DNA of 20,005 nucleotides from a virus. The notes under the pieces were generated by a model. The model was not told the DNA's origin. It saw only the letters and a program-made list of their open reading frames with translations, and did no database searches. Each line of letters starts with the position of its first letter. Position 1 is the first letter of the stretch. The position numbers and the translations under genes were made by a program. Location: positions 1 through 20,005 of the IMG/VR virus record IMGVR_UViG_3300009537_000234, one strand, 5' to 3'. This document shows, one piece after another, positions 2,170 to 13,647 of the stretch.

Positions 2170-3580
2170 CGCCTATCTAGACTTCCTCAACCGTTACGGC
2201 CCCCCGGCCGGGGAAGAGGGGCCAGCGCTGTTCGTGCGCGAGGTGCTGGGGATTGAGCCGGACCCTTGGCAGACAGAGGTGTTGCGGGCGTACGGGCGGC
2301 GGGAGCGCAAGATTAGCATCCGATCGTGTCATGGGCCGGGCAAGACCGCGGTAGCTGGCTGGATCGCGGACCATCAGCTTCTCACGCGCTACCCCCAGAA
2401 AACGGCCATCACGGCGCCCACAGGCGGGCAGCTCTACGATGCGCTGTTCTCGGAGATCAAGAAGTGGCTGAAGCGCTGTCCTCCGGCGCTCACCGACCTC
2501 TTCGTGATCCGGTCTGACCGCATCGAGCTGGCGTCTGCTCCCGAGGAGAGTTTTTTGACTGCACGGACGGCGCGCCCGGAGAATCCCGAAGCGTTGCAGG
2601 GCATCCACAGTGATTGGGTGCTGCTGATCGTGGACGAGGCTTCGGGTGTGCACGAGTCCATCTTCGAGGCGGCGGCGGGCTCGATGTCCGGCCACAATGC
2701 CACGACGCTCCTCCTCAGCAATCCGGTACGGACTTCGGGGCTGTTCTTCGACACGCATCACCGTCTGAAGCACGAATGGTACACGATGCACGTCAGCCAT
2801 CAGGACTCGCCACGGGTTTCGGAGGCGTTTGTGGGGGAGATGGCGGCGCGCTATGGCCGTGAGTCCAATGCTTTCCGCATTCGGTGCTTGGGGGAATTCC
2901 CGCGGAGCGACCTGGATACGGTGATCCCCTTCGAGTTGGTAGAGGCAGCTCGGATGCGGGATATTCTCCCGAGTCCGAAAGCGCAGACTGTCTGGGGGCT
3001 AGATGTGGCGCGCTTCGGAGGGGACCGTACGGCGCTTTGCAAACGGCGTGGGGACATCATTGTGGAGCCCGTGAAAGCATGGCGGGACCTCGACACGATG
3101 CAGGTTTGCGGCCGCATCAAGGCCGAGTGGGACATGACCGGCATTCCTGATCGGCCTATTGAGATTCTGGTGGACGTGATCGGGTATGGCGCTGGCGTAG
3201 TGGACCGCCTGCGCGAGTTGAAACTGCCGGTGCGCGGAATCAACGTCTCTGAGACGCCGGCGCTGAGTGATCGCTACCTCAATCAGCGCGCCGAGCTATG
3301 GTTCACAGCGCGGGAGTGGTTTCAGAAGCGCTCGGGCGTGATCCCAGACGACGAGGAGCTGATCGAAGAGTTGGTGGCGGTCAAGTACAAGGTGCGGGAT
3401 AGCAACGGAAGGCTCCAAGTGGAGGGTAAACAGGACATGAAGAAGCGCGGGCTGGCGTCACCCGACCTCGCAGACGCCTTCGTGCTCACGTTTGCGTCTG
3501 ATGCGGCGGCATTGTTGGGCATCAGCGCCGGCCGATCGTGGGCGGAGCCGCTAAAACGGCGGATCAAGGGGATTGTCTGA
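2162..3580 (+). CDS. terL: Terminase large subunit (packaging ATPase and nuclease)
   Basis: This 472-residue motor cuts concatemeric DNA and drives it through the portal. The N-terminal ATPase has Walker A at residues 55-62 (SCHGPGKT), Walker B at 154-159 (LLIVDE) with catalytic Glu159, and a coupling motif LLLSNP at 183-188. The C-terminal RNase H-like nuclease has its acidic residues at Asp281 (GLDVARFGGDRT), Asp338 (ILVDVIG) and Asp435/Asp438 (SPDLADAF). GTG 2162 is preferred over an upstream in-frame ATG at 2117 because it gives the usual N-terminus, overlaps the small subunit stop and has GAGGAAGG at a good distance upstream. Length is normal and all key residues are present. The stop overlaps the SPFH gene start (TGATG). 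Confidence 0.95.
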   Translation: MSNAYLDFLNRYGPPAGEEGPALFVREVLGIEPDPWQTEVLRAYGRRERKISIRSCHGPGKTAVAGWIADHQLLTRYPQKTAITAPTGGQLYDALFSEIKKWLKRCPPALTDLFVIRSDRIELASAPEESFLTARTARPENPEALQGIHSDWVLLIVDEASGVHESIFEAAAGSMSGHNATTLLLSNPVRTSGLFFDTHHRLKHEWYTMHVSHQDSPRVSEAFVGEMAARYGRESNAFRIRCLGEFPRSDLDTVIPFELVEAARMRDILPSPKAQTVWGLDVARFGGDRTALCKRRGDIIVEPVKAWRDLDTMQVCGRIKAEWDMTGIPDRPIEILVDVIGYGAGVVDRLRELKLPVRGINVSETPALSDRYLNQRAELWFTAREWFQKRSGVIPDDEELIEELVAVKYKVRDSNGRLQVEGKQDMKKRGLASPDLADAFVLTFASDAAALLGISAGRSWAEPLKRRIKGIV

Positions 3581-4188
3581 TGCCACTCAACTTCATTCAG
3601 TCGATTCTGGAGTTTCTGAGCGAATTCTGGCCCTTCGTGATCGTCGAACAGTGGGAACGGGGCGTGTTGCAGGTGCTTGGGCGTGTTCAAGAGCGAGGAG
3701 GCTGGTTTGCACGTCTTGCAAACCGCCTTCATATGGGCTTCCGCGAGGAAAATGGCTGCCTGAAGCCAGGGCTATACTTCATCATTCCCTGGTTCAGCCA
3801 CGTAGAGTGTGTGGATATTGTGGTGGCTCCGATTTCGACGCCGTTGCACAACATCACGCTCAAGGATCAGCGCACGCTCTCGTATTCGGCCACCGCGCTC
3901 GTGCAAGTGACCGATCCGATTGACGCGATCACGCAAGTCGACGACTACAAGGAGAGTGCGAGTGAGTTGGTGTCCTCCAAGCTCTCTGAAAAGCTGGCGG
4001 ATGTGGATGGCACGCGGCTGGACCCCGAGAATCGTCGCCGGTTGCTGCCTGACCTGCTCCGTTGGTGCAACGAAGACACGCAGCAGTATGGGGTGACGGT
4101 GTTGGGGCTCCGGTTCACCAACTTCGCACTCAACCAGCGGGCCTACCGGCTCCTGACGGACTCGGCGGTGGGCGCCCTGGCTTGGTAA
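3580..4188 (+). CDS. SPFH/band-7 (stomatin-like) protein
   Basis: The 202-residue product has the layout of an SPFH (stomatin/prohibitin/flotillin/HflK) domain. A hydrophobic N-terminal stretch (FIQSILEFLSEFWPFVIV, residues 5-22) could insert in the membrane. It is followed by EQWERGVLQVLGR, GCLKPGLYFIIPW (59-71), a TPLHNITLKDQRTLSYSATALVQVTDP-like core (87-113) and ITQVDDYKESASELVSSKLSE (117-137). These are the classic landmarks of the fold. It lacks the long C-terminal coiled coil of cellular stomatins, so it is short for the family. ATG 3580 overlaps the TerL stop. SPFH proteins form membrane rings and often control membrane proteases; its place between terminase and portal is unusual. Role in this phage unknown. 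Confidence 0.85.
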   Translation: MPLNFIQSILEFLSEFWPFVIVEQWERGVLQVLGRVQERGGWFARLANRLHMGFREENGCLKPGLYFIIPWFSHVECVDIVVAPISTPLHNITLKDQRTLSYSATALVQVTDPIDAITQVDDYKESASELVSSKLSEKLADVDGTRLDPENRRRLLPDLLRWCNEDTQQYGVTVLGLRFTNFALNQRAYRLLTDSAVGALAW

Positions 4189-4213
4189 CGCCCCTTCTAG
4201 CGCAACTTGAGGA

Positions 4214-4242
4214 TTGACAAACGAAGGAGGATACGTTACCTT
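4214..4242 (+). promoter_or_regulatory. Candidate sigma70-type promoter before the portal operon
   Basis: A perfect TTGACA lies at 4214-4219. With a 17-base spacer the -10 position (4237-4242) reads TACCTT, which keeps the key T1, A2 and T6 but is otherwise weak. It lies in the only non-coding gap of any size, directly before the first 33-bp repeat, so transcription would begin inside or next to that repeat. The inference is from position and consensus only. Confidence 0.4.
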
Positions 4243-4272
4243 ATCTTGCCGGCAAGTTAGGCCGGCCTAATC
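4240..4272. repeat. 33-bp double-palindrome repeat, copy 1
   Basis: This 33-base unit is identical to 4331-4363. It contains two perfect palindromes placed end to end: CTTGCCGGCAAG (4245-4256) and TTAGGCCGGCCTAA (4257-4270), both centred on GCCGGC. Homology continues to 4277 with one mismatch. Such symmetry suggests binding of dimeric proteins. It lies just downstream of the candidate promoter, where a repressor would act. Confidence 0.9.
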
Positions 4273-4330
4273 CCGCTCTCAGTCTTAGGACGCTTGAAAG
4301 GCAGCCGTGGCTAGGTTTCTGCCACGCACA

Positions 4331-4363
4331 CTTATCTTGCCGGCAAGTTAGGCCGGCCTAATC
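4331..4363. repeat. 33-bp double-palindrome repeat, copy 2
   Basis: Exact second copy of the 33-base unit, 91 bases after the first, with palindromes at 4336-4347 and 4348-4361. The stretch between the copies (4273-4330) is unrelated to the repeat and includes a weak hairpin, CGTGGC (4306-4311) pairing with GCCACG (4321-4326). The portal start codon is 53 bases downstream of this copy. Confidence 0.9.
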
Positions 4364-4416
4364 TCGCTATTCGTCCCACCTAACGCGGCGGCCTAGCTGC
4401 CCGCGGGGGTTTGTGC

Positions 4417-6573
4417 ATGCCCAAGCGCAAGAAGCTCACCGAGGACGAAGTACAGAGCCTCGTGGGGCGCCTCCTCCAAGAGGCGCGCACCTTCACTGAG
4501 GAAGAGCTGGACGGCGATCGTGCACTGCTGACCAACTACTACTTTGGGCGTCCCTTCGGAAACGAGGAGGACGGCCGATCGAAGATTGTCGTTCCCGAAG
4601 TCCGCAATGTGGTGCAGGCGATCCTTCCCTCGCTGATGCGGGTTTTCCTGGGTCCCGAGCAAGTCAACGAATTCAAGCCGCGGGGCCCCGAGGATGTGGA
4701 GGGGGCCAAGCAGGCGACCGACTACATCAACTTCGTCTTCATGGACGACAACCCCGGCGCCATGCTGCTGCACGCTGCGTTCAAGGACTCCTTGGTGCGC
4801 CGGCTAGGCATCATGAAGTGGTGGTGGGAGACGGAGGAGCGAGAAGGGCATGCGTTGCTCACCCATCTGACGGAAGACCAGCTCCTCTTGCTCCAAAACG
4901 ATTCTCATGTGGATGTGGAGATCGTCGCCGGGTCGATGGACCCCGAGTTGGGGGTCCCCGTGTACGATGTGGAGGTTGAGTACCGGCGCACGGGCATTCT
5001 GCGCGTCACGACCATCCCCCCGGAGGAGTTTCTGTTCAACCGCAGCGCCCGGGACCGCGACGAGGCCGCGTTGGTGGCCCACAGTCGCTACATGCCGGTC
5101 GAAGACGCAATCGCGCTCTTGGCGGACGTGGCGGACGAGGAAACGGTGCGGGACGCCGCCAGCAGCGGCGAATCGGGTGCGGGCACGAATCTGGACACGG
5201 AGAGCGCCGCAGCGCGGCGTTTCGATCGGGGTTTTACCTTCCCCGAGGAAGAGGTGGACCGGGTTCTGGTGACGGAAGCCTTTCCCTACCTTGACTTGGG
5301 AGACGGCCGGGCACGTTTGTACCGCGTATGGGCATTGGGAGATGCCTATGAGGTGCTGGACGAGCCACAGCCAATCTCACATCGGCCTTTCGCGCTATTC
5401 TGCCCGGACCCGGAGCCGCACACATTGATCGGGCTCTGTCCGGCAGACTATGTGAAGGACATTCAGGAGATCAAGTCAGCGGTGATGCGGGGGACGCTGG
5501 ACTCGCTGAATCTAGCGATCCATCAGCGGACGGAGGTGGTGGAGGGGCAGGTGAATCTCAACGATGCCATGAATACGGAAATGGGTGCCCTCGTGCGGGT
5601 GCGCGCTCCGGGTATGATGCGGGAGATTCGCCACAGCTTCATCGGGCCTGATGCGCTGGCGGTGATGCAGTACCTCGACGAGGACAAGGAGAACCGTACC
5701 GGCATCTCGAAGGCCGCGGCCGGCCTCGATGCGGATGCGCTGCAATCTTCGACGAAGGCGGCGGTAGCGGCAACGTTGTCCGCGGCCCAGCAGCACATCG
5801 AGCTGATCGCGCGCTTGTTCGCCGAGGGCGGGATGAAGCAGCTTTTCAAGGGGCTGCTGATGACCGTCTGCGAGAACCAGAACCAGGCTCGGATTATCCG
5901 CCTTCGCAACCAGTTTGTGGAGATGGACCCGCGCTCCTGGGATGCCAACATGGACGTGCGTTGCAACCTGGCGCTCGGGGCGGGCACGACTGAGGAGAAG
6001 ATTCAGGCACTCTTCCACATCAAGAGCGACCAGGACCAGATCATGCAGACACTCGGGCCGACGAATCCGCTCGTGAAGCTGAGTCAGCTTCGCAACACGC
6101 GGGCTCGCATGGTGGAGTTGATCGGCTTCCCCGATGCCGCCGAATTCTACCAGGAGATCGACCCGGAGCAAGAGAAGCAGATGGAGCAGGCTGCGGCGCA
6201 GGCGTCGAGCCAGCAACAGCCCGATCCGCAGGCTGCGGCGTACGTCCAGGCGGAGTACGCCAAGGTGCAGCAGCGGGCGCAGCAGGCCGCGATCGAGGCA
6301 CAACTGAAGCAGCACGAGCTGACGCTGCGGGAGCAGGAGATGCGCATGAAGGATGATCTCGAACGCGACAAGATCGCGGCGGAGCAGACGCTCGCCATGC
6401 ACAAGATGGAGCTGGAGCATCAGGCCAAACTCGACGCGGCGCAGATGACAGCCGACATGGAGCGGTTTCGGCTGGAATTGGAGGCCGGGCAACGTTCGCA
6501 GCGGCAATATGAACGTGTCGAACGCGACGAGGCCGGCAACGTGATCGCTCACGAACGCGAACAGGAGGGCTAA
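4417..6573 (+). CDS. Portal protein (SU10-like family)
   Basis: The 718-residue protein forms the dodecameric ring at the capsid vertex through which DNA enters and leaves. Recognition rests on family landmarks: an N-terminal YYFGRPFGNEEDGRSKIVVPEV stretch, LPSLMRVF and KDSLVRRLGIMKWWWE, then MGALVRVRAPGMM, YLDEDKENRTGISKAAAGLD and STKAAVAATLSAAQQHIELI in the crown and stem region. These are typical of the SU10-type portal. The last 130 residues are Gln/Glu/Lys-rich and likely coiled coil (barrel-like end). ATG 4417 has GGGGG 7 bases upstream; TTG 4411 in frame is less likely. The stop overlaps the next start (TAATG). Confidence 0.92.
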   Translation: MPKRKKLTEDEVQSLVGRLLQEARTFTEEELDGDRALLTNYYFGRPFGNEEDGRSKIVVPEVRNVVQAILPSLMRVFLGPEQVNEFKPRGPEDVEGAKQATDYINFVFMDDNPGAMLLHAAFKDSLVRRLGIMKWWWETEEREGHALLTHLTEDQLLLLQNDSHVDVEIVAGSMDPELGVPVYDVEVEYRRTGILRVTTIPPEEFLFNRSARDRDEAALVAHSRYMPVEDAIALLADVADEETVRDAASSGESGAGTNLDTESAAARRFDRGFTFPEEEVDRVLVTEAFPYLDLGDGRARLYRVWALGDAYEVLDEPQPISHRPFALFCPDPEPHTLIGLCPADYVKDIQEIKSAVMRGTLDSLNLAIHQRTEVVEGQVNLNDAMNTEMGALVRVRAPGMMREIRHSFIGPDALAVMQYLDEDKENRTGISKAAAGLDADALQSSTKAAVAATLSAAQQHIELIARLFAEGGMKQLFKGLLMTVCENQNQARIIRLRNQFVEMDPRSWDANMDVRCNLALGAGTTEEKIQALFHIKSDQDQIMQTLGPTNPLVKLSQLRNTRARMVELIGFPDAAEFYQEIDPEQEKQMEQAAAQASSQQQPDPQAAAYVQAEYAKVQQRAQQAAIEAQLKQHELTLREQEMRMKDDLERDKIAAEQTLAMHKMELEHQAKLDAAQMTADMERFRLELEAGQRSQRQYERVERDEAGNVIAHEREQEG

Positions 6574-13013: not shown

Positions 13014-13219
13014 CAGCCCTAATTCGGAAATGGATTCTAGGCTGCTTCGTTGCCCTTGTCGTAGCGTGCATTGGCGGCTGGTTGCTAGGGAAAGACCCAG
13101 AGCAACTGGTGCCCGTGCTCATGCTGGTGGTGGGGGCCCTAGGAGTGGGGGAAGCGAGCAACGTAGGCAAGCGTTGGACTACTAAGCCCGAGCTGGGTAC
13201 GGCGGAGAACCCTCGATGA
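13010..13219 (+). CDS. Holin-like two-helix membrane protein
   Basis: The 69-residue product has membrane helices at about 8-26 (WILGCFVALVVACIGGWLLG) and 33-48 (LVPVLMLVVGALGVGE), a short charged loop between them (KDPEQ) and a polar, basic C-terminal tail (KRWTTKPE). This size and topology fit a class II holin. It is joined by ATGA overlaps to the coiled-coil/TM gene before it and the DUF5675-like gene after it. The sequence does not match a holin family I can name, so the role comes from topology and neighbours. Confidence 0.6.
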   Translation: MTALIRKWILGCFVALVVACIGGWLLGKDPEQLVPVLMLVVGALGVGEASNVGKRWTTKPELGTAENPR

Positions 13220-13647
13220 GACTCCTGTTGGAACGTTTCCTCGCGAGCGCAGATGGTGTGTTTGGCGTCCTGACGGTCGCCGGCTATCACCTGTTCACCT
13301 GCGAGGAGGAAGACCTGGCGAACCGAGTCAGTGTCTCCTGCATCCCGCCGGGGCAGTATGCGCTGAAGCGCACCATTTACGTGAAACACGGATACCCGAC
13401 GTTCGAGGTGATGGATGTGCCAGGGCGCACTCGCATCCTCTTCCATCCCGGCAACACGGAGGAGGACACAGAGGGCTGCATCCTCGTGGGGCTGAGTCTC
13501 GGAGTGTTGGCAGTGACGGACGAGGATAGCGGCCAGCGCCGGAAGAAGCTCGCCGTCTTGTCCTCGCGGCGCGCTTTCGACGCCTTCATGAGCAAGATGG
13601 TGGGAGTGGACGAGGCGGAGCTGATTGTAACGCACTACGGAGGGTAG
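13216..13647 (+). CDS. DUF5675-like protein, possible lysis enzyme
   Basis: The 143-residue protein matches the DUF5675 pattern. It has an early FGVLTVAGYHLFTCEEED (16-33), CIPPGQYALKR (42-52), VPGRTRILFHPGN (68-80) with His77, DTEGCILVG (84-92) with Cys88 and a final SSRRAFDAFM (116-125). The ordered His and Cys on short strands recall the HxG...GC arrangement of L,D-transpeptidase (YkuD) enzymes; that link is my inference, and DUF5675 has no established function that I know. It directly follows two lysis-type membrane genes by an ATGA overlap, where an endolysin would normally be. There is no signal peptide. Confidence 0.65.
   Translation: MRLLLERFLASADGVFGVLTVAGYHLFTCEEEDLANRVSVSCIPPGQYALKRTIYVKHGYPTFEVMDVPGRTRILFHPGNTEEDTEGCILVGLSLGVLAVTDEDSGQRRKKLAVLSSRRAFDAFMSKMVGVDEAELIVTHYGG

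What the first reader, a model, noticed from the sequence alone, without database searches (positions are those of the whole stretch)
4240..4368. Two identical 33-bp repeats, each made of two abutting perfect palindromes
CTTGCCGGCAAG and TTAGGCCGGCCTAA sit side by side in both copies, 91 bases apart, inside the only real intergenic gap and downstream of a TTGACA box. Chance cannot easily explain two 12- and 14-base palindromes conserved twice. They could be operators for a dimeric regulator switching the capsid operon, a packaging start (pac) site near the terminase genes, or an RNA element in which CCGG loops pair with each other.
Basis: partly seen in the sequence, partly recalled or inferred. 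Interest (0 to 1): 0.66.

Follow-up and report, generated by a model that had tools for sequence, protein, structure and literature searches.

The report
Duplicated double palindrome before portal gene
A tightly packed phage genome has one large gap between genes, and in it the same pair of small palindromes occurs twice just before the capsid-building genes; it is most likely a pair of docking sites for a control protein, and it was found in no other phage or bacterium searched.

Summary
An exact 33-bp repeat, CTTATCTTGCCGGCAAGTTAGGCCGGCCTAATC, lies at 4240-4272 and 4331-4363 (91 bp start to start). Each copy holds two abutting perfect palindromes of 12 and 14 bp. The pair sits in a 228-bp gap between an SPFH/Band-7 gene and the portal gene; the next largest gap in the window is 77 bp. 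A 33-bp repeat is beyond chance (longest in 300 shuffles, 19). Palindromes of this size are not rare by themselves (6.8 of at least 12 bp expected per window), and the second copy is not an independent event. Identity is perfect over the dyads, while the next 12 bp still match 8/12 (p about 0.005), which suggests an older duplication whose dyads were kept.

The element looks private to this virus: no exact copy in the IMG/VR or GTDB-species scans, no similar stretch in phage or plasmid records, no counterpart in 66 related portal-upstream regions. The only relative found with the same TerL-SPFH-portal order (L141) has no gap at all.

Best reading: two operator units, each binding two dimers of an unidentified regulator, beside a possible promoter of the head operon (inferred, about 0.42). 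Packaging and RNA readings are less supported. An ordinary class of element with an unusual layout.

The parts
4189..4416 (.). 228-bp intergenic gap between the SPFH/Band-7 gene and the portal gene, largest in the window
   Evidence: next gap 77 bp; absent in relative L141
4214..4219 (+). TTGACA, possible -35 box
   Evidence: one of three on the + strand of the window
4237..4242 (+). TACCTT, weak possible -10 box 17 bp after TTGACA
   Evidence: read from the sequence; matches TATAAT at 3 of 6, not called by the promoter scan
4224..4230 (+). AAGGAGG, ribosome-binding-site-like sequence with no ATG, GTG or TTG at the usual distance
   Evidence: only copy in the window
4240..4272 (.). 33-bp repeat, copy 1
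4245..4256 (.). palindrome P1 (CTTGCCGGCAAG), copy 1; near-palindromic over 4242-4259
4257..4270 (.). palindrome P2 (TTAGGCCGGCCTAA), copy 1; centre 13 bp from that of P1
4331..4363 (.). 33-bp repeat, copy 2
4336..4347 (.). palindrome P1, copy 2
4348..4361 (.). palindrome P2, copy 2
4273..4284 (.). diverged 3' extension of copy 1 (8 of 12 identical to 4364-4375)
4364..4375 (.). diverged 3' extension of copy 2
3580..4188 (+). SPFH/Band-7 protein gene upstream
   Evidence: Pfam Band_7, E 7.4e-16
4417..6573 (+). portal protein gene downstream, first gene of the head-gene run
   Evidence: phrog_1216, E 2.9e-136

Best explanation
The gap is a small control region for the head genes (portal, scaffold, major capsid protein), and the two 33-bp blocks are operators. 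In each block a dimeric DNA-binding protein would sit on P1 and a second dimer on P2, centres 13 bp apart on a shared GCCGGC core, so that the two copies hold four dimers. Copy 1 overlaps the predicted -10/+1 of the TTGACA promoter-like sequence, so binding there would block or tune initiation; copy 2, 91 bp on, would strengthen this by cooperation, looping or a roadblock. Shown: the repeat, the dyads, their position in the only large gap, and their absence from everything else searched. Inferred: the promoter, the regulator, and that binding occurs at the DNA level.
For: Exact duplication of abutting dyads far beyond chance repeat length. Location in the one 228-bp gap of a genome whose genes mostly abut or overlap, so keeping this DNA suggests use. 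TTGACA lies just upstream of copy 1 (20 bp between them); with three copies on this strand in 20 kb, about 0.03 would be expected in a 228-bp gap (my arithmetic). Zero mismatches across the 33 bp holding the dyads while the adjoining 12 bp differ at 4 positions; extension p about 0.005, and at that divergence an intact 33 bp would have probability about 1.5e-6, if the flank is truly homologous. No intrinsic terminator called in the gap, no Rfam family of note, whole-gap folding no better than shuffles.
Against: The -10 box is weak and the promoter scan does not call it. No regulator gene is recognised in the window; the only helix-turn-helix domain identified is in the small terminase. No conservation in any relative examined, so the case for selection rests on two copies in one metagenomic contig. 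P1 and P2 have different arms. 91 bp is not a whole number of helical turns, so simple same-face looping is not implied.
Confidence: 0.42

Rival explanations
1. A scar without present function: the TerL-portal interval is a place where accessory genes come and go, and the gap is leftover DNA in which a short stretch was copied twice.
For: The TerL-portal distance varies from about 0.4 to 3 kb in relatives, and the gene content of the interval differs between those read. L141 has no gap. This window has two further close direct repeats, 23 nt at 1/104 and 40 nt at 797/874, so local duplication is not confined to this spot. AAGGAGG without a start codon would fit a lost gene start.
Against: The other two window repeats lie in short coding frames, not in a gap. 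Perfect identity of the dyads beside a diverged flank suggests constraint. Phage genomes tend to lose unused DNA (general knowledge).
Confidence: 0.27
2. An RNA leader element: the transcript forms two GCCGGC-AAGUUAG-GCCGGC hairpins, or copy 1 pairs with copy 2, controlling translation or processing of the portal mRNA.
For: The 33-nt block folds at -12 kcal/mol, z -2.3; P2 of copy 1 can pair with P2 of copy 2 in the long fold.
Against: Any repeated palindrome can do this. The whole leader is not more stable than shuffles (z -0.84). No Rfam match of note, no U tract after the hairpins, no covariation test possible.
Confidence: 0.15
3. A DNA-processing site: a packaging start (pac or terminal-repeat end), a replication origin with repeated binding sites, or a recombination site.
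For: Close to the terminase genes; repeated binding sites are typical of such places (general knowledge).
Against: phiM5 has an annotated 357-bp terminal repeat upstream of TerL. None of 66 related portal-upstream regions has repeated dyads like these. The contig does not end here.
Confidence: 0.09
4. A minimal CRISPR-like array (two repeats and one 58-bp spacer).
For: Repeat length 33 nt with an internal hairpin.
Against: Two repeats only, an over-long spacer, no Cas-like gene recognised in the window, no exact match of a 21-nt part of the repeat in the genome collection, no spacer match of weight in phages or plasmids.
Confidence: 0.02

Closest known systems
Multi-dyad phage operators (lambda OR/OL type; from general knowledge)
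   Same: Several short dyads in one intergenic region next to a promoter-like sequence
   Different: Here the dyads abut (centres 13 bp apart) and are arranged as two identical pairs 91 bp apart; no repressor gene or divergent promoter was found, and the site precedes the head genes
Tandem small-dyad operators of MetJ/Arc-type ribbon-helix-helix proteins (from general knowledge)
   Same: Adjacent small palindromes filled by neighbouring dimers
   Different: Longer centre spacing, different sequences, and no such protein identified here
Mycobacteriophage stoperators (PMC9283540, abstract seen)
   Same: Repeated repressor sites distributed away from the early promoter
   Different: Those are asymmetric and numerous across the genome; here they are symmetric, with two copies in 20 kb
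Phage pac sites and terminal-repeat ends (phiM5)
   Same: Near the terminase genes
   Different: In phiM5 the terminal repeat is upstream of TerL; no repeat is reported between TerL and portal

Membership tests
Phage transcription operator | Dyad-symmetric site in an intergenic region | tested here: met
Phage transcription operator | Overlaps or neighbours a promoter | tested here: inconclusive
   TTGACA N17 TACCTT by eye; not called by the scan
Phage transcription operator | Bound by an identified regulator | not testable with these tools
   no regulator recognised in the window, which is a partial genome
Phage transcription operator | Conserved in relatives with the same gene order (supporting, not strictly defining) | tested here: not met
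   absent in L141 and in the other portal-upstream regions examined; no close relative was available
pac or terminal-repeat site | Located where the genome end lies | tested here: inconclusive
   phiM5's terminal repeat is upstream of TerL; this virus's own ends are unknown
Structured RNA leader | Whole leader folds better than shuffled sequence | tested here: not met
   whole gap z -0.84; the 33-nt block alone z -2.3
Structured RNA leader | Covariation across relatives | not testable with these tools
   no second lineage carries the element
Structured RNA leader | Match to a known RNA family | tested here: not met
   only a chance-level hit outside the gap, E 3.7, below the gathering score
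CRISPR array | Repeat shared with a cellular array, or Cas genes nearby | tested here: not met

The most novel reading that the evidence does not exclude
A phage regulator of an undescribed kind binds abutting pairs of different palindromes with a common GCCGGC core, and the paired sites arose between SPFH and portal in this lineage to put the head genes under separate control.
Probability: 0.1. Interest if true: 0.5.

Novelty: new member of a known kind. Interest (0 to 1): 0.27.

Why it matters
If the sites are operators, they mark a separate switch for head-protein production in a phage lineage (structural genes akin to phiM5) where the same local gene order in a relative needs no gap: an example of a control region arising between two packed genes. 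If they are a scar, they show how such gaps begin. Either way the practical weight is small until a host or a near relative is known.

Tried and rejected
Further copies: none in the window at up to 33% mismatch of the 33-mer; no exact 26-mer or 18-mer in viral contigs; no exact 21-mer in genome contigs; no blastn match of weight in phages or plasmids. A relaxed two-palindrome pattern gave one viral contig (L173), but the match is single and inside an open coding frame, so taken as chance. An SPFH profile search returned only the contig already held as L141. Genome contigs gave four MCP relatives, fetched but not examined for the repeat. tRNA: none. Literature: exact motif strings gave only papers that look unrelated by title; two broader searches showed no paper on this arrangement among those listed, and a LUZ24/palindrome search gave no paper. 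No helical phasing follows from 91 bp (8.7 turns).

Full report
What is there. The window is a whole virus record of 20,005 bases, with no completeness estimate. Family searches identify terminase small and large subunits, portal, scaffold, major capsid protein and virion structural proteins, with an SPFH/Band-7 gene between TerL and portal. A 33-bp sequence, CTTATCTTGCCGGCAAGTTAGGCCGGCCTAATC, stands at 4240-4272 and again at 4331-4363. Each copy holds CTTGCCGGCAAG (P1) and TTAGGCCGGCCTAA (P2) end to end, centres 13 bp apart, both built on GCCGGC. P1 is near-palindromic over 18 bp, with one mismatched pair.

Is it more than chance. In 300 dinucleotide-preserving shuffles the longest direct repeat was 19 nt at most, against 33 here. 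Perfect palindromes of at least 12 bp are common (mean 6.8 per shuffle) and the window has 5, so the palindromes themselves carry little weight; abutting pairs arose 15 times in 300 shuffles. The weight comes from an abutting pair in the one large gap, duplicated exactly. GCCGGC occurs 39 times in the window, so the core alone cannot give specificity; the arms must.

Where it sits. In a hand-made gene chain the gap 4189-4416 is 228 bp and the next largest are 77 and 34 bp; most neighbouring genes abut or overlap. TTGACA at 4214-4219 is followed after 17 bp by TACCTT, a weak -10; the consensus scan does not call it. AAGGAGG at 4224-4230 has no start codon at the usual distance. No tRNA, no terminator call in the gap, and no Rfam family of note.

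How the copies differ. Identity begins 5 bp before P1 and is complete to 2 bp after P2. The following 12 bp match 8 of 12, and an extension of this size arose by chance in 0.5% of trials; beyond that the two units show no similarity above shuffles. If that flank is homologous, it has drifted while the dyads have not, which argues for constraint. This is the main evidence for function and it rests on two copies in one contig.

Relatives. Named-phage matches to the portal are all below 60% identity, the top-listed being Sinorhizobium phage phiM5 (39%). A published study places phiM5's structural genes with the LUZ24-like group and calls it temperate (PMC10386132, passages). Among 66 portal-upstream regions examined (the window's own included, and some contigs represented twice), only the window has repeated dyads like these. 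Close direct repeats of 20 nt or more do occur across the 165 loci, but no other repeat found there holds two such palindromes. L141, the only contig found with TerL-SPFH-portal in this order, has SPFH stop and portal start adjoining. In others the TerL-portal interval is 0.4-3 kb. So, on what was found, the gap and the repeats are particular to this lineage.

Other searches. Exact and relaxed searches of viral contigs, genome contigs, phage and plasmid records found no second case; the single relaxed hit is inside a coding frame.

Readings. Operator pair at the head-gene promoter: best supported, inferred, about 0.42. Functionless scar: 0.27, helped by the variable interval and by two other close repeats in this window. 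RNA leader: 0.15; the 33-nt block folds well alone (z -2.3) but the leader does not (z -0.84). Packaging, origin or recombination site: 0.09, lowered by phiM5's terminal repeat lying upstream of TerL. CRISPR-like: 0.02.

Limits. The contig is a partial genome as far as can be told, so a regulator may exist unseen. The host is unknown. The gene chain was chosen by hand; three of its entries had lengths not divisible by three because of approximate coordinates, and the start given for TerL is not a start codon, none of which affects the largest gap. An assembly artefact cannot be excluded without reads.

Noticed in passing
801-949: Two tiny overlapping frames encode near-identical hydrophobic peptides (MIWAFCAIVLVLIW... 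and MIWAFCAIVLVLVW...), a tandem duplication with 40 nt exact at 797/874; a weaker related stretch lies at 2-53.
   Followed up: partly
1-126: A 23-nt exact direct repeat (1-23 and 104-126); the second copy encodes the lipoprotein-signal-like VLVAGCG.
   Followed up: no
3580-4188: An SPFH/Band-7 (prohibitin-like) gene between TerL and portal; among phage records only one match was found (MW202733.1, 34%, annotated prohibitin-like) and one viral contig (L141).
   Followed up: partly
4224-4230: AAGGAGG, the only copy in the window, without a start codon at the usual distance.
   Followed up: no
13216-13647: DUF5675 family protein (Pfam E 5e-26).
   Followed up: no
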